Assembly: GCF_036322585.1 (NCBI RefSeq)
Contig: NZ_AP024600.1
Coordinates: 248,001-312,000 of the forward strand
Length of the DNA: 64,000 nt
Direction: 5' to 3'
Source of the DNA: Luteolibacter sp. LG18
GTDB lineage: Bacteria; Verrucomicrobiota; Verrucomicrobiia; Verrucomicrobiales; Akkermansiaceae
Below the pieces are notes generated by a model. That model saw only the letters and a program-made list of their open reading frames with translations. It was not told the DNA's origin and searched no databases. A program made the position numbers and the translations under genes. This document shows positions 30,033-40,991 of the stretch, in pieces (the stretch's first letter is position 1; every line of letters begins with the position of its first letter).

Positions 30033-31118
30033 ATGCCGACGGTGCATGTGGATTTGGCGGAGCGCTCCTACGACGTGGTCGTGGAGCCAGGTGCTTTGGC
30101 GAAAGCGGGCGAATTGCTGGGAGCGATCAAATTCGGCGGCAAGATCGCCGTGGTGAGCGATGCGACCGTGGCGAAATTCCACGGCGCGCCGCTGCTGGCA
30201 TCGCTGGAAGCCGCGGGCTTCAAGGCCACGCTCCACACCGTGCCCTCCGGCGAGCCCTCGAAGTCCCTTTCCCAGGCCGAGGAACTGTGCCGCTCGATGA
30301 TCCGGGCCGGCCATGACCGGAAATCCTCCGTGATCGCGCTCGGCGGTGGCGTCACCGGCGACCTCGCCGGGTTCGTGGCGGCCATTTTCTACCGTGGCAT
30401 CCCGTTTGCCCAGATCCCCACCACCATCGTCTCGAACGTTGATTCCTCCGTGGGCGGCAAGACCGGCGTCAACGTGGCCGAGGGCAAGAACCTCGTGGGC
30501 GCGTTCCACCAGCCGAAATTGGTGATCGTGGACCCGGAGCTGCTCCGCACCCTGCCCGCCCGCGAGTTCCTCGAAGGTTTCGCCGAGGTGATCAAGCACG
30601 CCGCCATCCGCGATGCCGCGATGCTCACGGAGCTGGCCGCCCTGGACTCGGATTCCCGCGACGTCCCGGCGGACCTGATCGCCCGCAACATCGCCATCAA
30701 GGCCCGCATCGTCGAAGCCGATGAGCACGAGCTGACCGGCGAGCGTGCGTTGCTGAACTTCGGCCACACCATCGGCCACGGCATTGAGGCCGCCGTGCCC
30801 TACGGCGAGATGCTCCACGGCGAGGCAATCTCGCTCGGCCTGCGAGCGGCTCTCTACCTTTCCGAAAAGCGCGCCGGGCTGGCGGCGGCGGATTCCGCCC
30901 GGATCCTGGCGTTGCTGAAACGATTCTGCCTGCCGCTCGTGCTTTCCCCGGAAATCACGACGGAAACAGTCCTTGAAAAGTTGGGACGCGACAAGAAGTT
31001 CGAGAGCGGGAAGGTCCGCTTCGTGGTGCTCGATGCGCCTGGATCGGCGCGGTTGAGCGACGAGGTGACCCCGGAGGACCTCCGCGAAGCGATCGAACAC
31101 CTGCGCACCCAGCCATGA
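30033..31118 (+). CDS. aroB: 3-dehydroquinate synthase
   Basis: Second step of the shikimate pathway, converting DAHP to 3-dehydroquinate with NAD and zinc. The 361-residue protein has GGGVTGDLAGFVAAIFYRG (NAD-binding), PTTIVSNVDSSVGGKTGVN, KNLVGAFHQPKLV, EGFAEVIKHAAI and the zinc ligands in LNFGHTIGHGIEA and LHGEAISLG. I start at the ATG at 30033. The next gene overlaps its stop as ATGA, so the MBL-fold protein is translationally coupled. Confidence 0.96.
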   Translation: MPTVHVDLAERSYDVVVEPGALAKAGELLGAIKFGGKIAVVSDATVAKFHGAPLLASLEAAGFKATLHTVPSGEPSKSLSQAEELCRSMIRAGHDRKSSVIALGGGVTGDLAGFVAAIFYRGIPFAQIPTTIVSNVDSSVGGKTGVNVAEGKNLVGAFHQPKLVIVDPELLRTLPAREFLEGFAEVIKHAAIRDAAMLTELAALDSDSRDVPADLIARNIAIKARIVEADEHELTGERALLNFGHTIGHGIEAAVPYGEMLHGEAISLGLRAALYLSEKRAGLAAADSARILALLKRFCLPLVLSPEITTETVLEKLGRDKKFESGKVRFVVLDAPGSARLSDEVTPEDLREAIEHLRTQP

Positions 31119-31720
31119 ATCTCAGTCTTTTCACCGGTGGTTTTGTCCAGACCAACGGTTACCTGATCGAAGCCCCCAGCGGGCACATTCTCGTCGATGC
31201 CCCGGCCGGGGTGGTCGCTTGGATGGAGCAAAAGGGCATCCATCCCACCGATGTGCTGCTGACCCACCAGCACTACGACCATGTCGAGGATGTCGCCGCC
31301 CTGCACCGGCTGGGAGCCCGGATCCACGCTTTCGCGGAGTATTCGCCGTCGCTGACGCTGGAACGGGAGGCCCGCAGTTGGGGCATGCCCATCGCGATCG
31401 AGCCCTACGAGGTGAACCACCTCCTCAAGATCGACGAGCCACTGAAAATCAACGGATTCGTCATCAAACTGGCCCATGTACCGGGCCATTCCGCGGACAG
31501 CGTGACGTTCTATTTCCCGGAGGAAGGCGTGCTGTTTTCCGGCGACACCTTGTTCGCGCGGAGTGTCGGGCGCTTCGATCTCCCCGGCGGCGACGGCCCG
31601 CTGCTGCTCGATGGGATCACCCGCAAGCTGCTCACCCTGCCCCCGGACACCCGGGTGTTTCCCGGACATGGTCCTTCCACGACGGTTGGAAAGGAACAAA
31701 AGGCGAATCCGTATCTCTGA
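31115..31720 (+). CDS. MBL-fold (glyoxalase II-like) metallo-hydrolase
   Basis: Cytoplasmic hydrolase of 201 residues with the metallo-beta-lactamase fold. The metal motif is THQHYDHVED (HxHxDH), followed by HVPGHSADSVTFY, the bridging Asp in LFSGDTLFARSVGR and the final His in VFPGHGPSTTVGKE. The arrangement is that of hydroxyacylglutathione hydrolase-like proteins, though the glutathione-specific C-terminal domain is missing. Coupled to aroB by an ATGA overlap. Substrate unknown. Confidence 0.88.
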   Translation: MNLSLFTGGFVQTNGYLIEAPSGHILVDAPAGVVAWMEQKGIHPTDVLLTHQHYDHVEDVAALHRLGARIHAFAEYSPSLTLEREARSWGMPIAIEPYEVNHLLKIDEPLKINGFVIKLAHVPGHSADSVTFYFPEEGVLFSGDTLFARSVGRFDLPGGDGPLLLDGITRKLLTLPPDTRVFPGHGPSTTVGKEQKANPYL

Positions 31721-31852: not shown

Positions 31853-34495
31853 ATGCCTGAAATCCCTCCATCGCCCCCTCCGGTGCCGATTCCCGAGTCG
31901 CTGCGCCTGCAGCTTGAGGAATTCCGCCGGGTCTTGTGGCGGATCAAAGTCCAGGAAGCAGTCATCGCCGGGGTAATCGGCCTTTTGGTGTCGTTCCTGC
32001 TGGTTTACGGCCTCGACCGGATCTGGCAGACGCCGGCACTGGTGCGCCTGCTGATCCTCATCGGCGGCACCTCGGTGTTCGCCATTTTCGCGCCGTTCTG
32101 GATCCACCGCTGGGTGTGGCGGCACCGCCGGGAGAACCAGCTCGCCCGCCTGATCGCCCAGCGGTTCCCGGGGCTTGGCGACCGGCTGCTGGGAGTCGTG
32201 GAACTCCAGAGCCAGCAGGAGAGCGTCACCTCGCTTTCACCGCGCCTCCGGGCTGCCGCCATGGAAGCCGTGGCCGCGGAAGCCGCCAGTCGCACGCTGG
32301 CCGAGGCCCTGCCGCCTGCCCGCCACAAAAAATGGGCGCTGGCCGCGCTGACCTTGTTCGCCGGAGCCGCCGCAATCCTGATTTCCGCCCCACGGGCGGG
32401 CACGAACGCCCTGCGCCGCTGGTTGATGCCGCTTTCCGACACGCCCCGCTACACTTTCACGATGCTGGACTCGCCGCCCACCGAGCTGGCAGTGCCGTTC
32501 GGCGAGGCCTTCGACATCGAGCTGCGGCTTTCCCCGGACTCGGAGAAGCAGCCCGGAACCGCCGCGGGCCGCTACGGCCTCCAGCCTCCGGTGAACACCG
32601 ACCTGCACGACGGCCTCTACCATTTCCAATTCCCCGGCCAGCAGGACCCGGGCACGATCGTGTTCCACATCGGCGACGCAGTCCACGAAACCCGGATCAC
32701 TCCGGTCCAGCGTCCCGCCGCGGAAAAAACGACCGTCCACGTGATGCCGCCGACCTACCTTGGCATCCCGGAAAAGACGGTGGAGCTCGACACCGGCGTG
32801 CTGAGCGTGGTGGAGGGTAGCCAGGTGGACATCCGGATCCGCACCTCGCGGCCGCTCCAGACCGCCCGTTTCGGCCCCACCGTCGCCAGCCGCCCCCCGG
32901 CTCCGGACAAGCAGGAGGCCGTGCCTGCATTCGTGCCAATCGAGGGGGAACTGACCCTCCAGGGCCAGGATGCGCGCACGCCGGTGATTGCCGTGGGCAG
33001 CGTGCCCTTCGACATCCCCTTTTCCTGGAAGGATGATTTCGGCCTCGCCAATGGCAGCGGCTTCAAGCTCCGGATCGACCCCCTCAAGGACGCGGCACCG
33101 ACCGCCTACCTCCAGGGCGTGGAACGCCAGAAGGTGATGCTCCCGGAGGAGACGCTCGACATGGAAGTGCTCGCCGAGGATGACTTCGGCTTGAAGGTCG
33201 CGGGCATCGAGTGGACGGGCGAGTTCACCCGGCCCACCGACGAAGCCCCCGCGAGCGGCGGCATGAAGTTGAGCGATGGCGGCACCGAGCAGCGGCGTTT
33301 TTCCGGTCCGGTGGCGTTCTCGCCCGCGGCCTTCGGCATCGGGCCGCAGAAACTCACCCTGCGCGCCTATTCGGAGGATTTCCTCCCCGGTCGGCCGCGC
33401 GCCTATTCGGAGCCGGTCACGCTCTACGTGCTGACCCGGGACGAGCACGCGCAGATGTTGAAGAACCAGTTCGACCGCTCGATCACCGAGCTGGAGGACC
33501 TCGCCCGCCGCGAGCGCAACCAGCTTGAGGAAAACGAGCGTCTCCAGCGTCTGGATGGAGCCGACCTCCAGAAGGACGAGAACCGCAACCGCCTCGATGC
33601 CCAGCAGCAGGCGGAAACGGAAAACACCCGCCGCATGGAAGAGCTGTCCCAACGCATGGAGCAGCTCATGAAGGACTCCACCCGCAACGGCCAGATCGAC
33701 AAGAACACGCTCAAGAAGATGGCGGAGTCACTCAAGTCGATGCAGGAGCTGTCCAAGCAGGACATGCCGAAGGTCGACTCCAAGCTCGGCGATTCGACCG
33801 AGGAAACCAACACGCCCGAGAAGACGAAGAAGGACGTGGAGGACGCGGTGAAGGAGCAGCAGAAAGCCGTGGAGAAAATGCAGGCCGCCATCGAGAAGGC
33901 GAACGACGCCAACCGCCGTTTCGAGGCCGGCACCTTCGTCAGCCGCTTGAAGAAGGCCGCCTCCGAGGAAGACGGCATCGCCACCACGCTGGTGCGGAAG
34001 CACGACGTGCTGCTCGGATTGAAAGCCTCCGAGATCGACCCCGCCGACCAGCGGCTGCTGAACGAATCGGTGCGCCAGCAATCCGACACCGCCTCCGACG
34101 TCCGCTGGATCCAGGAGGACTTGGGCCACTACTACACGCGGACGGAGAAGGAGACCTTCAAGCAGATCCTCGACGAGATGCGCGATTCCAAGATCGACAT
34201 CGGACTGGAGGAAGTGCGCGCCCGGCTGCAGACCGCGAAAAGCTTCACCGCCACCGAGGGCGCCAAGGACTGGTCCACCAAGCTCGCCGAGTGGGCGAAG
34301 AAGCTGGAAGGCGACATGAACCAACCGGGCGGCGGCGGTGGCGGCAACGGCGGAGGAAACTCCGAGGACGAGGATTTCGAGTTCATGCTGCGTGTCATGA
34401 AGATGGTGCAGCAGGAAATGGACATCCGCTCGCAAACCCGTGCCTTGGAACAATTCCAGCGCGCCAACCAGGAACCCGCTCCCGCCAAGCCATGA
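31853..34495 (+). CDS. Large membrane protein with long coiled coil (DUF4175-like)
   Basis: Protein of 880 residues. There are three transmembrane helices near the N-terminus (AVIAGVIGLLVSFLLVYGL, LLILIGGTSVFAIFAPFWI and WALAALTLFAGAAAILISA). A periplasmic region with repeated Ig-like or beta-sandwich segments follows. The C-terminal 350 residues are strongly helical and charged (LARRERNQLEENERLQRL onward) with a Gly/Asn-rich break near the end (GGGGGGNGGGNS). The layout matches the DUF4175-type proteins common in this phylum. It is the first gene of a tightly coupled run; the next start overlaps its stop. Assembly or scaffold role in the envelope is inferred. Confidence 0.8.
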   Translation: MPEIPPSPPPVPIPESLRLQLEEFRRVLWRIKVQEAVIAGVIGLLVSFLLVYGLDRIWQTPALVRLLILIGGTSVFAIFAPFWIHRWVWRHRRENQLARLIAQRFPGLGDRLLGVVELQSQQESVTSLSPRLRAAAMEAVAAEAASRTLAEALPPARHKKWALAALTLFAGAAAILISAPRAGTNALRRWLMPLSDTPRYTFTMLDSPPTELAVPFGEAFDIELRLSPDSEKQPGTAAGRYGLQPPVNTDLHDGLYHFQFPGQQDPGTIVFHIGDAVHETRITPVQRPAAEKTTVHVMPPTYLGIPEKTVELDTGVLSVVEGSQVDIRIRTSRPLQTARFGPTVASRPPAPDKQEAVPAFVPIEGELTLQGQDARTPVIAVGSVPFDIPFSWKDDFGLANGSGFKLRIDPLKDAAPTAYLQGVERQKVMLPEETLDMEVLAEDDFGLKVAGIEWTGEFTRPTDEAPASGGMKLSDGGTEQRRFSGPVAFSPAAFGIGPQKLTLRAYSEDFLPGRPRAYSEPVTLYVLTRDEHAQMLKNQFDRSITELEDLARRERNQLEENERLQRLDGADLQKDENRNRLDAQQQAETENTRRMEELSQRMEQLMKDSTRNGQIDKNTLKKMAESLKSMQELSKQDMPKVDSKLGDSTEETNTPEKTKKDVEDAVKEQQKAVEKMQAAIEKANDANRRFEAGTFVSRLKKAASEEDGIATTLVRKHDVLLGLKASEIDPADQRLLNESVRQQSDTASDVRWIQEDLGHYYTRTEKETFKQILDEMRDSKIDIGLEEVRARLQTAKSFTATEGAKDWSTKLAEWAKKLEGDMNQPGGGGGGNGGGNSEDEDFEFMLRVMKMVQQEMDIRSQTRALEQFQRANQEPAPAKP

Positions 34496-35181
34496 AAACC
34501 CGACACTTGCTCGCCATGATGCTCGTCGCCACGGCTCCGCTGTGGGCGGAGGGTGACGCCGCACCGGCGAAACAGGCGATTGCCAAGGCGGACGACACCG
34601 TGGTGACCGCGGATGACGACCACAAGGCTGGCTCAGGCAAACTCGCGACCCGGCAGGACGAGCTCTCCGCCGATGTCCAGCAGCTCGCGCTGGAGCAGAC
34701 CGTCAAGAAGGTCATCGACCTCCTCAAGGAGTGCGAGGACATCATGGGCGAGGCCACCGAGCGGCTGATGGACCAGGACACCGGCGGCGAGACCATCGCC
34801 GCCCAGACCGAGGTTATCGAAAAGATCCTGGAAGCCGCCAAGGCCCGCCAGCAACAGAGCGGCCAAGGCCAGGGACAGGACCAAAGCCAGAGTCAGGCCG
34901 GCGGCGCGATGATGGACATGCTCGAACGCATGGCCGGAAAGCCCCAGCCGGGCGACCAGGAAGGCCCGCCGAAGGAAGGCAAGCAAGGCGGCGACACCGG
35001 CGGTGGCGGCGTCCACGGCCTGTCCGACAGCGCCAACTCCACCACTGGAAACGGCGGCGACGGCAAACCGGAGCCACGCCGCGTGCCGAAGGCCGCAGGG
35101 ACCGCGGGCAAAGCCCTGCCGGAGGAGTTCCGCGGCGCGCTGGACGCCTACAACCGGGGGGCCGACAAACTCGCGAAATGA
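34492..35181 (+). CDS. Secreted Gln/Gly-rich protein
   Basis: Protein of 229 residues with signal peptide MKTRHLLAMMLVATAPLWA. An alpha-helical domain (LSADVQQLALEQTVKKVIDL onward) is followed by a low-complexity Gln/Gly stretch with repeated GQGQDQSQSQ-like units and a Gly-rich segment (GGDTGGGGVHGLSDS), ending in a short conserved-looking helix (LPEEFRGALDAYNRGADKLA). The start overlaps the preceding stop as ATGA, and the next gene overlaps this one the same way. No family recognised. Confidence 0.72.
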   Translation: MKTRHLLAMMLVATAPLWAEGDAAPAKQAIAKADDTVVTADDDHKAGSGKLATRQDELSADVQQLALEQTVKKVIDLLKECEDIMGEATERLMDQDTGGETIAAQTEVIEKILEAAKARQQQSGQGQGQDQSQSQAGGAMMDMLERMAGKPQPGDQEGPPKEGKQGGDTGGGGVHGLSDSANSTTGNGGDGKPEPRRVPKAAGTAGKALPEEFRGALDAYNRGADKLAK

Positions 35182-36158
35182 GATTCTTCCTGCCACTCCT
35201 TTTCCTCGTGACGGCCGCCCGCGGCCAGGACCTGCCGCGGCGCGCGGATGACACCATCCCCGCGCAGGTGGAGTCGATGTACGTACGAGGCTTGCAGTAT
35301 CTCGCCAAAAACCAGAACGCGCAGGGCTCGTGGACCGACAACGTCGGATCCGAACCCGCCGTGGTCGGATTGTGCGTGCTGGCCTTCCTCGCCCACGGCG
35401 AGGATCCGAACGTGGGCCCGAACGCCCCCTACATCCGCAAGGGGCTCGACTACATCTTGTCCCAGCAGAACGCGAACAACGGCTACATCGGGAACAGCAT
35501 GTACAACCACGGGTTCTCGACGCTCTGCCTGGCGGAGGCCTATGGCGTGGTCGACAACCCGAAGATCGCCCCGGCCCTGAAGAAGGCCGTGGACCTGATT
35601 CTCAGCGCCCAGAAGCGCAACTCCCGCTTCAACGCCTGGCGCTACACGCCGGACAGCAAGGACGCGGACACCACCGTCTCCGGCTGCCAGATCGTGGCCC
35701 TCTTCGCCGCGCGCAACGCGGGACTCGGCGTGCCGGACGACTCCATCAACAAGGGCCTGGCCTACCTGGCCAAGAACCGGGACAACGACGGCGGCTACGG
35801 CTACACCTCCGCGGGCGGCAGCAAGCCGACCCTCACCGCGATCGGCTCGCTCTGCCTCTCGCTGGCGAAGAGCAAGGACTCGAAGGAATACAAGGCCAGC
35901 CTGGAATACCTGAAGAAGAACCTCGACTACCGGGACCGCTACTACCCCTACTACTACGAATACTATATGTCGCAGGCGCTGTTCCACGCGGACGAGACCG
36001 TCTGGCGCGACTGGAACGCCCGCAACATCCGCTACATGGCCACGCTCCAGAACCGGGACGGGTCGTGGCCCGGCAGCCAGGGCGGTTCCTTCAGCACCGC
36101 CGGAGCCCTGCTTTCGCTGGCATTGAACTATCGGTTCCTGCCGATCTACGAGAAATGA
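35178..36158 (+). CDS. Secreted squalene-cyclase/prenyltransferase-fold repeat protein
   Basis: Protein of 326 residues with signal peptide MRFFLPLLFLVTAARG. Alpha/alpha toroid repeats follow with QW-like motifs: KNQNAQGSWTDNVGSE, SQQNANNGYIGNSMYNHGFS, KNRDNDGGYGYTS and LQNRDGSWPGSQGGSFSTAG. There is no DxDD catalytic motif. It is a paralogue of the protein encoded at 6719-7870. It is translationally coupled on both sides (ATGA overlaps), placing it at the centre of the envelope operon. Likely a binding or scaffold protein outside the inner membrane. Confidence 0.84.
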   Translation: MRFFLPLLFLVTAARGQDLPRRADDTIPAQVESMYVRGLQYLAKNQNAQGSWTDNVGSEPAVVGLCVLAFLAHGEDPNVGPNAPYIRKGLDYILSQQNANNGYIGNSMYNHGFSTLCLAEAYGVVDNPKIAPALKKAVDLILSAQKRNSRFNAWRYTPDSKDADTTVSGCQIVALFAARNAGLGVPDDSINKGLAYLAKNRDNDGGYGYTSAGGSKPTLTAIGSLCLSLAKSKDSKEYKASLEYLKKNLDYRDRYYPYYYEYYMSQALFHADETVWRDWNARNIRYMATLQNRDGSWPGSQGGSFSTAGALLSLALNYRFLPIYEK

Positions 36159-37684
36159 AGCGCCTTTTTCCAGCCCTGCTGCTCGGCATCTCCCCGGTCC
36201 ACTCCGCGGAAGAAGCCGCGTCCGCCGATCTCCTGCGGTTCACCAACGGGAACCGGCTCGACGGGCATTTCGGCGGCCTGAAGGAAGGCCCGGCCGTGGT
36301 GTGGAAGCGGGACGACGTGGACGCCCCCGTCGACTTCAAGGTCACCCAGCTCCGCCAGGTCGTGCTCCGCTCCGCCCGCCCCGCGAAACCGCTTCCGGAC
36401 CTTTCCAGCGTCAGCCTCGTGAATGGCGACCGCATTCCGGGCACCATCACCGCGATGGACGCCCACGAGGTCTCCATCGACACCGTCTTCGCCGGTCCGC
36501 TGGTGATTCCGCGGGCGAGCGTGAGCATGATCTCCCCGAATCCCCTGGGTGGAAAACTCCTCTTCAACGGCCCGTTCTCGGAAGAAGGATGGAACCTCAC
36601 CGCCCCCGAGCAGGAGGAACCTCCGGCCGTGAAAGCCAACGGGAACCGCAAGGACGCCGATCATGCGGACGATCCACCGGAGGAGAAAAAGCTGCCCGCG
36701 TGGTCCTACTCCAGCGGCGCGTGGTACCACCGGCAGGGTGCCACGGCGCTCACCCGGGATGTGCACATGCCGGACCGGGCGATGGTCCGGTTCCAGATCG
36801 CGTGGAAATCGCGGCTCGCGCTGGCGATCGCCTTCCACGCCGACCTCAAGAAGCCGGACAAGGCGGCCGACGACGCGAAGAACGGGCAAGGTCGTCCGGA
36901 CAACGGCCCCGGCCTGCCGATGATGTTCGGCAATGCCTACGTGATGAACCTTTATCCCGGCTACGTGATCCTGAACCGCTGCGGATACGACGACAACGGC
37001 AAGCCGGTCCTAGAGCGCATCCAATCGAGCGCCACCAACGCCCGCCTGCCGGAATCCGGCGAGGCCACGGTCGAGATCCGCTGCAACCGCAAGAACGGGG
37101 AGATCGCCCTGTTCATCAACGACGAGTTCGCCGCCCAGTGGACCGAAGGCACGGGCGAGGGCGACGATGGCTACGCGGGCCGCGGCGGTGCCATCGGCTT
37201 CCAGGTCCAGACCTTGTCCGCACCCGGGCAGATGGCCAATGCCCCGGTGCGCATCTCCGACCTGGTGGTGGCGGAGTGGAACGGCATGCCCGATGCCGCC
37301 CGCAGCCTCCAGACCAACGACATGGACATCGTCCTGCTCTCGAATGGAACCGACCGCTTTTCCGGAGAAGTCACCGGGCTGGCGAAAGGGAAGCTCCAGT
37401 TGAAGGGCCGCTACGGAGCCGTCGAGTTCCCCATGGATGACGTCGCCGAAGTGCGCTTCGCCCGCAACCGCCTGGCGAAGGCCCAGGAACCGACCTCGAA
37501 CCAGGTCCAAGTGCGCTTTCTCCCGTTCGGCCGTTTGTCCGGAGCCACCAAGGAAGGCACCGGCTCGAGCCTGATCCTCACCTCCCCGGTGGTCGGAAAA
37601 ACCAAGGTCGACCTCGACTACGCCGTGATGCTCGATTTCAAAAACTCCAACAGTTTTCTCGATGATTGGGATGCCCAGTTCTGA
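36155..37684 (+). CDS. Secreted LamG/DUF1080-like protein, paralogue 1
   Basis: Protein of 509 residues with signal peptide MKRLFPALLLGISPVHS. N-terminal beta-repeats carry the signature N-G-x-R-L/I-x-G (LLRFTNGNRLDGHFGG and LVNGDRIPGTITAMD). A central beta-sandwich begins LLFNGPFSEEGWNL, like the LFNGKDLxGW start of 3-keto-disaccharide hydrolase (DUF1080) domains, and continues with strands such as GEIALFINDEFAAQW. A final repeat reads GTDRFSGEVTGLAKG. No catalytic residues can be assigned. First of three tandem paralogues; it overlaps its neighbours on both sides. Confidence 0.78.
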   Translation: MKRLFPALLLGISPVHSAEEAASADLLRFTNGNRLDGHFGGLKEGPAVVWKRDDVDAPVDFKVTQLRQVVLRSARPAKPLPDLSSVSLVNGDRIPGTITAMDAHEVSIDTVFAGPLVIPRASVSMISPNPLGGKLLFNGPFSEEGWNLTAPEQEEPPAVKANGNRKDADHADDPPEEKKLPAWSYSSGAWYHRQGATALTRDVHMPDRAMVRFQIAWKSRLALAIAFHADLKKPDKAADDAKNGQGRPDNGPGLPMMFGNAYVMNLYPGYVILNRCGYDDNGKPVLERIQSSATNARLPESGEATVEIRCNRKNGEIALFINDEFAAQWTEGTGEGDDGYAGRGGAIGFQVQTLSAPGQMANAPVRISDLVVAEWNGMPDAARSLQTNDMDIVLLSNGTDRFSGEVTGLAKGKLQLKGRYGAVEFPMDDVAEVRFARNRLAKAQEPTSNQVQVRFLPFGRLSGATKEGTGSSLILTSPVVGKTKVDLDYAVMLDFKNSNSFLDDWDAQF

Positions 37685-39017
37685 CCGCCTCGCACGCCTC
37701 GCGGGCGGGATGGTCCTGCTGGCGATGGCCAACGCCACCGCGGATGAAATCGTCCTGGACGGCTCCTCGAAGCTTTCCGGGAAGGTCACCGCCATCACGG
37801 AGGGCGGAGGCGTTCAAATCGAGTCCCCGGTGGCGTCCGAGCCACTGTCGCTGAAACCCGGCGCGGTGAAGCGCGTGGTCTTCGCGGAAACCAACGAGAC
37901 CCCGGCACCGGGCGGCACCCGGCTCACGCTGCAGAACGGCGACCACCTGCCCTGCGAGCTGAAAAGCATGGATGACTCGACCTTGATGGTCGCCACCTCC
38001 TTTGCCGGGGACCTGAAGATCCCCCGCGCGATCCTCAGCACGATGGACCTGGGCATCCACGAGGAAAAGGTGCTCTACGACGGGGTCACCGGCTTGGAAG
38101 GCTGGACCAACGACAAGTGGAAATCCCAGGACAACCGCTTTACCTGCAACGGCAGCGGCCGGATGTCCCGCTCGTTCGACTTGCCCGACCAGTTCGCGAT
38201 CCGTTTCACGCTCTCCTGGCGCGGCAACCCGAACTTCCAGGCGACCTTCGCCGATCTGCCGGACTCCGATTCCCCGACCGTCAGCCGCTACGCCTTTCAG
38301 TTCAACAATGGCGGCATCGAGTTGCGCCGCCTGGGCGGGCAACGCCCGGGTGCCTCGACCACGCTCATCCAGCTCAACAACAACCGCCAGCCGGACTCGT
38401 TCCCGAACTCCAGAATGGACGTGGAGATCCGCGTGAACCGCGGCCGTTCGGAGCTGTGGCTGCTCGTCGACGGCGTGCTGGAAGGCCACCGCGCCGATCC
38501 GGTGAAGGACCCGCCCGCGGGCGGCGGCCTCTCCTTCTCCACCAATGCCGGTGGCGACACCGAGCAAACGGTCAGCAATCTCCGCATCACCTCCTGGGAT
38601 GCGGACAGCGACCGCTACCGCACCGAGGACCGCGGTGACACCACCAGTGATTCGCTCATCTTCGCCGACGGTGATCGCTACAGCGGCAAGCTCGAGTCCA
38701 TCCGCACTCCCGCCGATGGCAAAACCGTGCTGTCATTCAAAAGCCCGGTGCTGGAGCAACCGATGACCATTCCGGCCCGGAACGTATCGACGGTGTTCTT
38801 CAAGGCTCCCAAGAACACGGAGCCCGCCCCTCCCCCTTCCCCGTTTCTCCTACGCCTACAGGGAGGCGGTAGCCTGCAGGTCGACTCCTGCTCGTTCTCC
38901 GGCAATCGCATCGAGGCTCGCCACGCGCGGCTCGGCGCCCTGTCCCTGAAACGCTCTTCCGTGGCCTCGATCGAACAGGCCGGCTTCACCCCGGACCCAA
39001 AGGAATCCCAGGAATGA
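37662..39017 (+). CDS. Secreted LamG/DUF1080-like protein, paralogue 2
   Basis: Protein of 451 residues with a signal peptide (ARLAGGMVLLAMANATA). It has the same plan as its neighbours: beta-repeats (DGSSKLSGKVTAI and LQNGDHLPCELKSMDD), a central domain starting VLYDGVTGLEGWTND, the strand pair SELWLLVDGVLEGHR, and a C-terminal repeat (ADGDRYSGKLESIR). The start may be the ATG at 37662 or 37671; both overlap the previous gene. It ends in an ATGA overlap with paralogue 3. Function unknown. Confidence 0.76.
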   Translation: MIGMPSSDRLARLAGGMVLLAMANATADEIVLDGSSKLSGKVTAITEGGGVQIESPVASEPLSLKPGAVKRVVFAETNETPAPGGTRLTLQNGDHLPCELKSMDDSTLMVATSFAGDLKIPRAILSTMDLGIHEEKVLYDGVTGLEGWTNDKWKSQDNRFTCNGSGRMSRSFDLPDQFAIRFTLSWRGNPNFQATFADLPDSDSPTVSRYAFQFNNGGIELRRLGGQRPGASTTLIQLNNNRQPDSFPNSRMDVEIRVNRGRSELWLLVDGVLEGHRADPVKDPPAGGGLSFSTNAGGDTEQTVSNLRITSWDADSDRYRTEDRGDTTSDSLIFADGDRYSGKLESIRTPADGKTVLSFKSPVLEQPMTIPARNVSTVFFKAPKNTEPAPPPSPFLLRLQGGGSLQVDSCSFSGNRIEARHARLGALSLKRSSVASIEQAGFTPDPKESQE

Positions 39018-40408
39018 AACTCCAGCACCTGACCGCCCTTCTGTTGACGGCCATGCTTCCCGCCGGGGCCGCCTCCAATGGGACCATCCTGCTCTCGAAC
39101 CACGACCAACTGGGTGGCGGGCTTTCCTCCATCTCCAAGGAACGCATTATCTGGGAATCGCCACTGCTGGAGCGTCCCGCTTCGTTCATGATGGGCAAGG
39201 TGCAGGAACTGAACCTGCCCGCTGCCACTCCCGAATCGACGGCGAACTACGAAGCCGTGGTAGCCCTCACCAACGGCGACACGCTCCGCGGCCAACTGGC
39301 ATCGGTGACGGACAAGACGATCGAACTGGACACCTGGTACGCAGGGCGCCTCACCCTGAACCGCCCGATGGTGGAAACGGTGCACATCGAGGACCGCCCG
39401 AAGCTGTTGTTCCGCGGACCGGATTCCATCGATGGCTGGACGATCGATGAAAACTCGCAGCGCCAGAAGGACAAGCCCGCTCCCTGGTTCTTCGAATCCG
39501 GCGCGCTGCAATCGCGATCCCAAGGCGGCATCTCGCGGGACGTGAAGCTCCCGGACCTGTGCCGCATCGGCTTCACCCTGGAATGGCATTCGGCCCTGCG
39601 GCTGAAATTCGTTTTCGCCTCGGACGCTCCCGGCACCGTCAATCCCCGGCACTGCTACGAGCTGATGATGCAGCGCCGCTACGCCTCGCTGCGGAAAAAA
39701 TCCGAGAGCGGCTCGATCGTGCTCGGCCCCCAGACGCAGAACATCCCGGAGTTCAGCGAGAACGAGAAGGCGCGGGTCGAACTCTGCGTCGACCGGAAAA
39801 AAGGCGTCTTCAATCTCATCGTTGAAGGCCGCTCGGTGGTGGTGTGGAACGATCCCGATGCCCGGGACGTCCCGACCGGAGGAAACATCCACTTCGTCAC
39901 CGAAGATGGCAGCTCGATCCGTATTTCCCGGATCGAAATCTCCGCGTGGGATGGAGTGATCGACCAGATGCCGGAGACGGAGGATCTGAATGCGGCCGAA
40001 CAGCAGGAGAACGAAGCCAAGGAGGCCAAGTCGAAGGAAGTGGAATCCGGCCGGATGATGCTGCGGAACGGCGACTCACTCGCCGGGGACGTGCTTTCGA
40101 TCAAGGACGGCCTGATGAAGGTGAAAACCCGCTTCAGCGAGATCGACCTGCCGGTATCCCGTCTCAAGACGATCTCCCTCAAGCCAGTGGATCCGGAAAG
40201 CCCGAAGATCCGGGATGGCGACATCCGCGCCTGGTTCCCGGATGGCAGCCGCGTGGTCTTCCGCCTGGACTCGTCCACTGCGGACACCCTCACCGGCTAC
40301 AGCCAGAATTTCGGCACCGCCACCTTCAAGACCTCGGCCTTCAACCGCATCGAGTTCAACCTCTACGATCCCGCCTTCATGGAGCTGCGGGGCGAAAAGG
40401 GCTGGTAG
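39014..40408 (+). CDS. Secreted LamG/DUF1080-like protein, paralogue 3
   Basis: Protein of 464 residues with signal peptide MKLQHLTALLLTAMLPAGAA. Repeats (LSNHDQLGGGLSSIS and LTNGDTLRGQLASVTD) precede the central domain, which starts LLFRGPDSIDGWTIDEN and includes GVFNLIVEGRSVVVW. The C-terminus has a further pair (RNGDSLAGDVLSIKDG and FPDGSRVVFRLDSS). It is the last gene of the coupled run and ends 7 bases before the convergent aat gene, with no obvious terminator between. Function unknown. Confidence 0.77.
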   Translation: MKLQHLTALLLTAMLPAGAASNGTILLSNHDQLGGGLSSISKERIIWESPLLERPASFMMGKVQELNLPAATPESTANYEAVVALTNGDTLRGQLASVTDKTIELDTWYAGRLTLNRPMVETVHIEDRPKLLFRGPDSIDGWTIDENSQRQKDKPAPWFFESGALQSRSQGGISRDVKLPDLCRIGFTLEWHSALRLKFVFASDAPGTVNPRHCYELMMQRRYASLRKKSESGSIVLGPQTQNIPEFSENEKARVELCVDRKKGVFNLIVEGRSVVVWNDPDARDVPTGGNIHFVTEDGSSIRISRIEISAWDGVIDQMPETEDLNAAEQQENEAKEAKSKEVESGRMMLRNGDSLAGDVLSIKDGLMKVKTRFSEIDLPVSRLKTISLKPVDPESPKIRDGDIRAWFPDGSRVVFRLDSSTADTLTGYSQNFGTATFKTSAFNRIEFNLYDPAFMELRGEKGW

Positions 40409-40415
40409 GAGGGCC

Positions 40416-40991
40416 TCACTTGAGAAGGTCCGTGAGCGCCTCCTTCAGGAGCTTTAGATAGGCCTTCCGGGGCACCTCGAACGCGCCGAAGGTGGCGAGG
40501 TGGCTGGTCAGCCATTGGGTATCAAGCAGCGTGAACCCGTGTGTGCGCAATCGCTCGACCAGATGGACGAGCGCGATCTTCGAAGCGTCCGTCTTCCGGG
40601 AAAACATGCTCTCCCCGAAAAACGCCCGCCCTAGGGCCACGCCGTAGAGACCACCCTGCAATCCCTCGTCGTCCCAACACTCCACCGAGTGGGCGAATCC
40701 CCGTTCGTGCAGGGCGCAGTAGCTTTCCACGATCCGTGGATCGATCCACGTCTCCGGACGCTCCGAGCAACCCGTCATCACCTCGCGGAAGGCCGTGTCC
40801 CAACGGATCTCGAAGGGATGCTTTCGCAGGGCCCGCTTCAGGCCGTGCGGGATGTGGAACCGCCTGTCCAGCGGGATGACTCCGCGCATTTCAGGCGAGA
40901 ACCACAGGATCTCGCCCTCATGCGCCATCGGAAACACGCCCTGGGCGTAGGCCCCCAGGAGCGTGTCCGGTGGAATAACCTCGTGGCTCAC
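40416..40991 (-). CDS. aat: Leucyl/phenylalanyl-tRNA-protein transferase
   Basis: N-end-rule enzyme: adds Leu or Phe from aminoacyl-tRNA to proteins with N-terminal Arg or Lys, marking them for ClpAP. The 191-residue protein shows LGAYAQGVFPMAHEGEILWF, SPEMRGVIPL, ETWIDPRIVESYCALHERG, GGLYGVALGRAFFGESMFS and TLLDTQWLTSHLATFGAFEV. The start is a GTG at 40991, overlapping the stop of the Sel1-repeat gene as GTGA. No clpS or clpA gene is nearby. Confidence 0.94.
   Translation of the reverse strand: MSHEVIPPDTLLGAYAQGVFPMAHEGEILWFSPEMRGVIPLDRRFHIPHGLKRALRKHPFEIRWDTAFREVMTGCSERPETWIDPRIVESYCALHERGFAHSVECWDDEGLQGGLYGVALGRAFFGESMFSRKTDASKIALVHLVERLRTHGFTLLDTQWLTSHLATFGAFEVPRKAYLKLLKEALTDLLK

What the first reader, a model, noticed from the sequence alone, without database searches (positions are those of the whole stretch)
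31853..40408. Six-gene, translationally coupled envelope operon of unknown function
Six consecutive genes overlap by ATGA (34492, 35178, 36155, 39014) or by 14-23 bases (37662/37671). They encode a large three-helix membrane coiled-coil protein, a Gln/Gly-rich secreted protein, a squalene-cyclase-fold protein and three paralogous secreted proteins. All but the first have signal peptides and none shows a known catalytic set. Such tight coupling argues for a stoichiometric envelope complex. DUF4175-like and toroid proteins are known to occur near MoxR/VWA genes in related phyla, but none of those is present here. This is the best candidate for an undescribed system in the window.
Basis: partly seen in the sequence, partly recalled or inferred. 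Interest (0 to 1): 0.72.

Follow-up and report, generated by a model that had tools for sequence, protein, structure and literature searches.

The report
Split-off half of MoxR envelope system
The six overlapping genes look like the downstream half of a larger cell-envelope machine with a MoxR-type ATPase, whose upstream half sits about 169,000 bases away in the same genome; in the relatives sampled, including what is very probably the gut bacterium Akkermansia muciniphila, the two halves are almost always present or absent together.

Summary
But the locus is not a stand-alone system. In ten fetched loci from eight other families, homologues of P1 and P3 (and, in nine, of P4-P6) follow MoxR, DUF58, a BatA-type protein and a second membrane protein ("c5") on one strand. 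In the window's own genome these four genes lie together 169 kb upstream. P1 and c5 co-occur: both in 42, P1 alone in 2, c5 alone in 0, neither in 145 of 189 class genomes; in a phylum draw of 193, the same 32 genomes carry each. In 21 Akkermansia-group genomes the parts are all present in 13 and all absent in 8, the latter one clade. P2 is carried as the C-terminus of P1 in 13 of 14 sister P1s. P6 has a concanavalin-like jelly roll (Z 18.1). Best reading: a MoxR-based chaperone module acting on a periplasmic P1-P2/toroid/lectin-like complex. The linkage is shown; the mechanism is inferred.

The parts
31853..34495 (+). P1: 880 aa, three TM segments (N-terminus inside by the positive-inside rule, judged by eye), beta strands 211-526 and helices 529-822 in the predicted periplasmic part; distant relative of proteins in DUF4175-type operons
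34492..35181 (+). P2: 229 aa, exported by its N-terminus (by eye), Q/G-rich; corresponds to the C-terminus of P1 in sister families
35178..36158 (+). P3: 326 aa, exported (by eye), squalene-cyclase-type toroid; DAD[TS][TS] in 15 of 16 homologues aligned (one has a residue inserted) and the tail LNYR[FY]LPIYE[KR] in 16 of 16
36155..37684 (+). P4: 509 aa, exported (by eye); paralogue of P6, fold by homology only
37671..39017 (+). P5: 448 aa, exported (by eye); paralogue of P6 (alternative start 37662), fold by homology only
39014..40408 (+). P6: 464 aa, exported (by eye); model shows a jelly roll at about 131-311 with small five-strand units before and after it (four in all)

Best explanation
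P1-P6 is the client/effector half of a verrucomicrobial MoxR-type envelope system whose other half (MoxR, DUF58, a BatA-type protein, and c5, a membrane protein with a glutamine-amidotransferase-like region and a VWA-like DxSxS motif) now sits at about 103.4-110.5 kb of the same genome. Inferred mechanism: the cytosolic MoxR ATPase with DUF58 spends ATP; the membrane proteins BatA and c5, each with a DxSxS motif after the second of three TM segments (so probably on the periplasmic side), couple this to P1. P1 and its detached C-terminal piece P2 form the scaffold in the inner membrane and periplasm. The toroid P3 docks there, possibly through its invariant tail, and the lectin-like P4-P6 are the outward, glycan- or surface-facing parts that the machine loads, folds or re-arranges. 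Shown: gene order, separation into two loci, co-occurrence, P1:P2 fusion, the P6 fold. Inferred: topology of the complex, direction of work, glycan binding.
For: MoxR-DUF58-BatA-c5-P1-P3 run in ten loci of eight families: L042 and L048+L091 (f2), L053+L090 (f3), L046 and L055+L092 (f4), L100 (f43), L101 (f10), L104 (f55), L108 (f15), L110 (f58); P4-P6 homologues follow in nine, none was found in L101; one or more extra genes (c3) lie between P1 and P3 in f2, f3, f4 and f43. The own-genome block L083 holds the MoxR closest to the operonic ones (64-72% identity to eight of them, against 27-47% to seven other own-genome MoxR-type proteins; the 4.32 Mb copy was not in that comparison and is 53% to L042 MoxR, where L083 is 68%). 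Co-occurrence: 42 both, 2 P1 only, 0 c5 only, 145 neither of 189; one exception (G070) has c5 cut by a contig end. In a phylum draw of 193, the same 32 genomes carry both, 19 of them outside the class. In 12 class genomes the halves are on one contig but far apart (20 kb or more) and both kept; in 17 they are on different contigs. In 21 Akkermansia-group genomes MoxR orthologue (64-72%), c5, P1 and P3 are all present in 13 and all absent in 8. The P2 profile matches the tail of 13 of 14 sister P1s and of none of 17 split-type P1s above threshold. Topology agrees: three TM segments put the P1 C-terminus outside, and P2 has its own leader. DxSxS in BatA (97) and c5 (98), invariant in 11 of 11 c5. 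P6 fold. Folding/redox partners: an AhpC/TSA domain ends 11 of 13 long P4-P6 homologues tested and a PPIase domain lies in one of them; a cyclophilin gene follows P6 in L071 and L078.
Against: No expression, interaction or phenotype data. Co-occurrence counts are not phylogenetically independent; the 8 Akkermansia-group absences form one clade, so one event. G111 has P1 but no c5 hit. For the 17 genomes with the halves on different contigs a contig break is excluded only where I read the flanks. Many sister loci show no MoxR block next to P1 (listed in the full report), and L102 and L105 have BatA-c5 without MoxR and DUF58 nearby. Pfam gave no VWA match to c5 or BatA of the own genome; the VWA reading rests on one motif. 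No carbohydrate-binding residues were tested. The P1 model is of modest quality (pTM 0.48).
Confidence: 0.6

Rival explanations
1. Bat-like redox/stress maintenance: the system keeps exported proteins folded or reduced in the periplasm, and P4-P6 are chaperone-like holders rather than glycan binders.
For: Bat operons combine MoxR with DUF58 and VWA proteins, and a Riemerella moxR mutant links them to heat and oxidative stress resistance (passages of PMC3557215 and PMC11834572). An AhpC/TSA domain ends 11 of 13 long P4-P6 homologues tested, and one of them has a PPIase domain; cyclophilin genes follow P6 in L071 and L078.
Against: P4-P6 of the window have no thioredoxin match and only 2-3 cysteines each. 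Growth and morphology of Leptospira bat mutants were equivalent to wild type (section heading seen).
Confidence: 0.25
2. P3 is an active class II cyclase-like enzyme and the locus makes or modifies an envelope isoprenoid.
For: Toroid match to SQHop_cyclase_C; DAD[TS][TS] in 15 of 16 P3s resembles the DxDD stretch of hopene cyclases (judged by eye, from recall).
Against: 326 aa only. Profile matches place this stretch late in the cyclase profiles, away from the DxDD site (the place of DxDD in them is recalled), though the repeats make the register uncertain. None of the other five proteins had a Pfam or NCBIfam match to an isoprenoid enzyme.
Confidence: 0.1
3. The unlinked halves are unrelated survivors of an old gene neighbourhood; each now works alone.
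For: The halves are not adjacent in any of the 22 f1 genomes with both (12 far apart on one contig, 10 on different contigs), nor in genomes of six further families (different contigs).
Against: Near-perfect co-retention, and joint absence in one Akkermansia-group clade.
Confidence: 0.05

Closest known systems
Bat (Bacteroides aerotolerance) MoxR-DUF58-BatA operons
   Same: MoxR, DUF58 and the BatA N-terminal domain by Pfam; membrane proteins with a DxSxS motif
   Different: The downstream part is P1/P2, a toroid and lectin-like proteins; no BatC-type TPR or BatD match among the proteins scanned; here the set is in two loci
NorQ/NorD and other MoxR/VWA chaperone pairs (PMC9976466, passages)
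   Same: AAA+ MoxR plus, here by motif only, VWA-type partners
   Different: One VWA partner and a known membrane-enzyme client there; two membrane-anchored partners and an exported multi-protein set here
DUF4175 proteins (PF13779), e.g. Acinetobacter AdvA (PMC7481262, passages)
   Same: P1 is a BLAST relative of the equivalent gene in paralogous MoxR operons; such a protein in the own genome scores over the DUF4175 cut-off
   Different: P1 itself does not match PF13779
CBM66 / galectin-like concanavalin fold (4azz, 1oq1)
   Same: Jelly roll of P6: 1oq1 Z 18.1, rmsd 2.7, 174 aligned; 4azz Z 16.2, rmsd 2.9, 154 aligned
   Different: Flanked by small barrel-like units; binding residues not tested; the GH16-type ExDxE pattern is absent from window P4-P6, and among 18 rows a looser pattern occurs only in five rows of L071 and L078, in acidic inserts or tails

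Membership tests
MoxR-type (Bat-like) envelope system | MoxR AAA+ ATPase adjacent to the locus | tested here: not met
   No AAA_3 match in the window; nearest orthologous block 169 kb away
MoxR-type (Bat-like) envelope system | MoxR + DUF58 + BatA-type + second membrane gene contiguous with homologues of this locus in relatives, and present in trans here | tested here: met
MoxR-type (Bat-like) envelope system | VWA domain with MIDAS in the membrane partners | tested here: inconclusive
   DxSxS motif in BatA (97) and c5 (98), but no Pfam VWA match to either own-genome protein at E 0.01; L042 BatA has a weak one (0.02)
MoxR-type (Bat-like) envelope system | physical or functional interaction of both halves | not testable with these tools
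   needs genetics or pull-down
Bacteroides-type bat operon | BatC (TPR) and BatD present downstream | tested here: inconclusive
   No such Pfam match among P1-P6 or the relatives scanned; genes after c5 in L083 were not scanned
DUF4175 (PF13779) | profile score over the curated cut-off for P1 | tested here: not met
   (no match up to E 1); genome search with the family found only the 4.33 Mb protein
DUF4175 (PF13779) | homology of P1 to proteins that do score | tested here: inconclusive
   P1 hits the equivalent proteins in L058-L063 (E 1e-11 to 3e-15) and L064 (3e-6), but not L057, the one shown to score
Squalene-hopene / oxidosqualene cyclase | toroid fold by sequence profile | tested here: met
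   PF13243 2.3e-12, over cut-off
Squalene-hopene / oxidosqualene cyclase | two-domain protein of about 630 aa (size recalled; the solved ones listed are 631-732 aa) | tested here: not met
   326 aa
Squalene-hopene / oxidosqualene cyclase | DxDD acid motif at its place | tested here: inconclusive
   DADTT present; register in the repeats ambiguous
Concanavalin-A-like lectin/glucanase fold (P6; P4 and P5 by homology) | jelly-roll fold | tested here: met
   P6 model only: Z 18.1 to 1oq1, 16.2 to CBM66
Concanavalin-A-like lectin/glucanase fold (P6; P4 and P5 by homology) | carbohydrate binding | not testable with these tools
   no binding assay or ligand modelling

The most novel reading that the evidence does not exclude
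A previously undescribed ATP-driven trans-envelope machine of Verrucomicrobiota: a MoxR-based motor acting across the inner membrane on a P1-P2-toroid scaffold to load or re-arrange exported lectin-like proteins at the cell surface, kept in A. muciniphila, where it could serve mucin- or wall-glycan handling.
Probability: 0.3. Interest if true: 0.8.

Novelty: new variant of a known kind. Interest (0 to 1): 0.62.

Why it matters
It turns six orphan genes into half of a defined ten-gene set with an assignable motor, gives directly testable partners (c5 and BatA with P1), and is present in a genome that is very probably the A. muciniphila type strain, where the parts are scattered and neighbourhood alone would not connect them. 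Joint absence in one Akkermansia-group clade gives a natural comparison of strains with and without it.

Tried and rejected
Stand-alone undescribed system: rejected, because the other half was found in trans and contiguous in relatives. P1 as a plain DUF4175 member: profile not met; NCBIfam on 17 P1s gave seven families, each in one member only. The P1 Foldseek list held mostly Ig-domain and complement proteins at low TM-score: no useful relative. The P6 fold search also listed clostridial neurotoxin binding domains among many jelly-roll proteins; I read this as a shared common fold, not a relationship. The small barrels of P6 are barely covered by the structure search and remain untyped; weak Hfq-like hits are below cut-off. 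Several independent losses in the Akkermansia group: not supported, one clade in a single-gene tree of a paralogous MoxR. Literature: searches for MoxR with DUF58/Planctomycetes, von Willebrand factor/squalene cyclase (33), squalene-hopene cyclase (70), DUF4175 (7) and for aerotolerance/Akkermansia/von Willebrand factor (69) found no paper; MoxR with BatA/aerotolerance (60), Verrucomicrobia (61) or Akkermansia muciniphila (62) and DUF4175 alone (64) listed 7, 7, 1 and 1, of which I saw titles and abstract starts, and passages of five papers on MoxR, Bat or DUF4175; none that I saw describes this gene set. Subscription journals are mostly missing from that library. An Akkermansia transposon search listed one review, not opened.

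Dropped or against: of 59 genomes (own included) 56 had a P1 match at E 0.001, 51 of them at 1e-60 or better; G003, G042 and G052 had none. I fetched wide stretches around only part of these. L041 lacks P4; L069 and L080 are cut by contig ends. In the class set 52 genomes had a P1 match at 1e-20 and 72 a c5 match; I counted 44 (E 1.5e-128 or better; the next is 5e-39) and 42 (2.4e-227 or better; the next is 1.3e-123), cut-offs chosen after seeing the gaps. The phylum set was run with cut-offs set beforehand in the calls (1e-60 and 1e-100).
Full report
The finding and its check. The six genes are present at the stated places and the junctions read as claimed. In 22 loci of the same family the overlaps recur, most strictly at P3/P4 (20 of 21) and P5/P6 (21 of 22). 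Of 59 genomes searched, own included, 56 had a P1 match and 51 one at E 1e-60 or better. Of 14 genus loci that I fetched widely, 13 carry all six genes in order (in L066 P6 is cut by the contig end) and one (L041) lacks P4. Among 14 loci with named records, five carry all six (in L079 P1 is cut), seven carry only P1-P2 at that place, and two are cut by contig ends. Named hosts include Haloferula rosea and several Akkermansiaceae/Verrucomicrobiaceae records. In the seven P1-P2-only genomes a close P3 exists elsewhere (E 4e-159 or better), and in the three that I fetched it is followed by P4-P5-P6 (L113-L115).

Where the genes come from. In other families the same genes continue a longer run. 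L042, L046, L048 (with L091), L053 (with L090), L055 (with L092), L100, L101, L104, L108 and L110 show MoxR, DUF58, a BatA-type protein, c5, P1 and P3 in this order on one strand (in L053 c5 is in two ORFs, and in L055 about 1.2 kb lies between c5 and P1). P4-P6 homologues follow in nine of these ten; none was found in L101. One or more extra genes (c3) stand between P1 and P3 in L042, L046, L048, L053, L055 and L100. For L042, Pfam gives MoxR/AAA_3, DUF58 and the BatA N-terminal domain; the same holds for the own-genome block. c5 has only a sub-threshold GATase1-like match and no VWA match, but a DxSxS motif that is invariant in 11 c5 sequences; its paralogue in the own genome scores for GATase1_like. 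Not every P1 locus outside the family has this block beside it: L043, L044, L045, L047, L049, L051 and L054 show none, L050 and L052 lie near contig ends or locus edges, L056 has it in the opposite direction, L102 and L105 show BatA-c5 without MoxR and DUF58, L109 shows c5 only, and L103, L106, L107, L111 and L112 show none.

The missing half. The own genome has eight MoxR-type ATPases over the AAA_3 cut-off, none in the window. One of them, in L083, is followed by DUF58, BatA and c5 (MoxR 68%, then 48%, 31% and 44% identical to L042) at about 103.4-110.5 kb, 169 kb before P1. Its MoxR is 64-72% identical to eight operonic MoxRs but at most 47% to seven other own-genome MoxR-type proteins (one of these is below the cut-off; the 4.32 Mb copy was not compared; that copy is 53% to L042 MoxR).

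Co-occurrence. With profiles for P1 (A4) and c5 (A5) over the same 189 class genomes (minimum completeness 90% asked for), both occur in 42, P1 alone in 2 (G070, where c5 is cut by a contig end; G111, where none was found), c5 alone in 0 and neither in 145. Thirteen are adjacent (ten families), 12 are far apart on one contig (all f1) and 17 are on different contigs. A phylum draw of 193 genomes gave the same 32 genomes with P1 and with c5; 19 lie outside the class, of which by my count from the listings 14 have the two genes within 1 kb, two at 1.8-2.1 kb and three on different contigs. Adjacency is therefore probably ancestral and separation derived; no species tree was made. In group g18 (21 genomes) MoxR orthologue, c5, P1 and P3 are all found in 13 and all missing in 8, while lower-identity MoxR paralogues (44-54%) remain in the 8. 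The 8 form one clade in a tree of a paralogous MoxR (support 98/99), so this is one event. g18 is Akkermansia by inference: the single contig of G145 is 2,664,102 bases, the length printed for A. muciniphila ATCC BAA-835 (PMC3048395, passages). In the g18 stretches read, MoxR-DUF58 (L143, L144), BatA-c5 (L118, L119) and P1-P3 with P4-P6 homologues (L093-L096) lie apart.

Anatomy. P1: three TM segments, beta-rich region 211-526 and helices 529-822 (AlphaFold mean pLDDT 75.6, pTM 0.48). P2 matches the tail of 13 of 14 sister P1s (in the exception, L050, the piece is a separate ORF) and of none of 17 split-type P1s above threshold: a fused/split pair, which argues for contact of P1 and P2. P3: a toroid by profile with an invariant tail. 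P6: jelly roll with small units on both sides (mean pLDDT 80.6, pTM 0.60; 1oq1 Z 18.1, rmsd 2.7, 174 aligned; CBM66 4azz Z 16.2, rmsd 2.9, 154 aligned). An AhpC/TSA domain ends 11 of 13 long P4-P6 homologues of other families; L047 and L100 have none.

How it most likely works. Shown: order, two loci, co-retention, fused/split P1-P2, the P6 fold. From published MoxR/VWA work (NorQ/NorD, PMC9976466, passages): ATP hydrolysis in the MoxR ring is passed through a VWA partner whose MIDAS grips the client. Inferred here: BatA and c5 present their DxSxS domains outside the membrane and act on P1-P2, which holds P3 and the lectin-like P4-P6. The redox and PPIase add-ons of relatives fit a folding or assembly task. 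Whether the end product handles surface glycans is open.

Novelty. The ATPase half is of a known kind (Bat-like); the client half and its separation were described in none of the papers that I saw through the searches named in Tried and rejected. I rate it a new variant of a known kind.

Noticed in passing
L057 3359-12218 (G000:C1 about 4.323-4.332 Mb): A second, paralogous set in the window's own genome: MoxR, DUF58, a BatA-like gene, a DUF4175 protein and a GATase1-like protein, contiguous. Related sets lie in L058, L059, L060, L063 and L064; a last gene (HEAT, glutaredoxin-like and weak DsbD by Pfam in L064) is shared by L058, L059 and L063, not seen in L060.
   Followed up: partly
L042, L044, L045, L046, L048, L049, L050, L052, L053, L054, L055: Homologues of P4-P6 are single long proteins ending in an AhpC/TSA (thioredoxin-like) domain (11 of 13 tested); L055 also has a PPIase domain.
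   Followed up: partly
L071 12605-13171, L078 18503-19090: A cyclophilin-type PPIase gene closely follows P6 in Haloferula rosea and a relative.
   Followed up: no
L093 11747-11980: A fragment of a second P3 copy lies before the intact P3 in one Akkermansia-group genome (G077); G198 has two long P3 copies side by side.
   Followed up: no
window 31115-31720 and 40416-40991: A metallo-beta-lactamase-fold gene upstream and aat (opposite strand, 7 bases between the ends) downstream are also neighbours in L097 and L098 (gene names by homology or recall).
   Followed up: no
L045 3126-7337: A 1403-aa protein matches both the sister-family extra gene (c3) and the P4-P6 family and ends in an AhpC/TSA domain, a possible further fusion.
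   Followed up: partly
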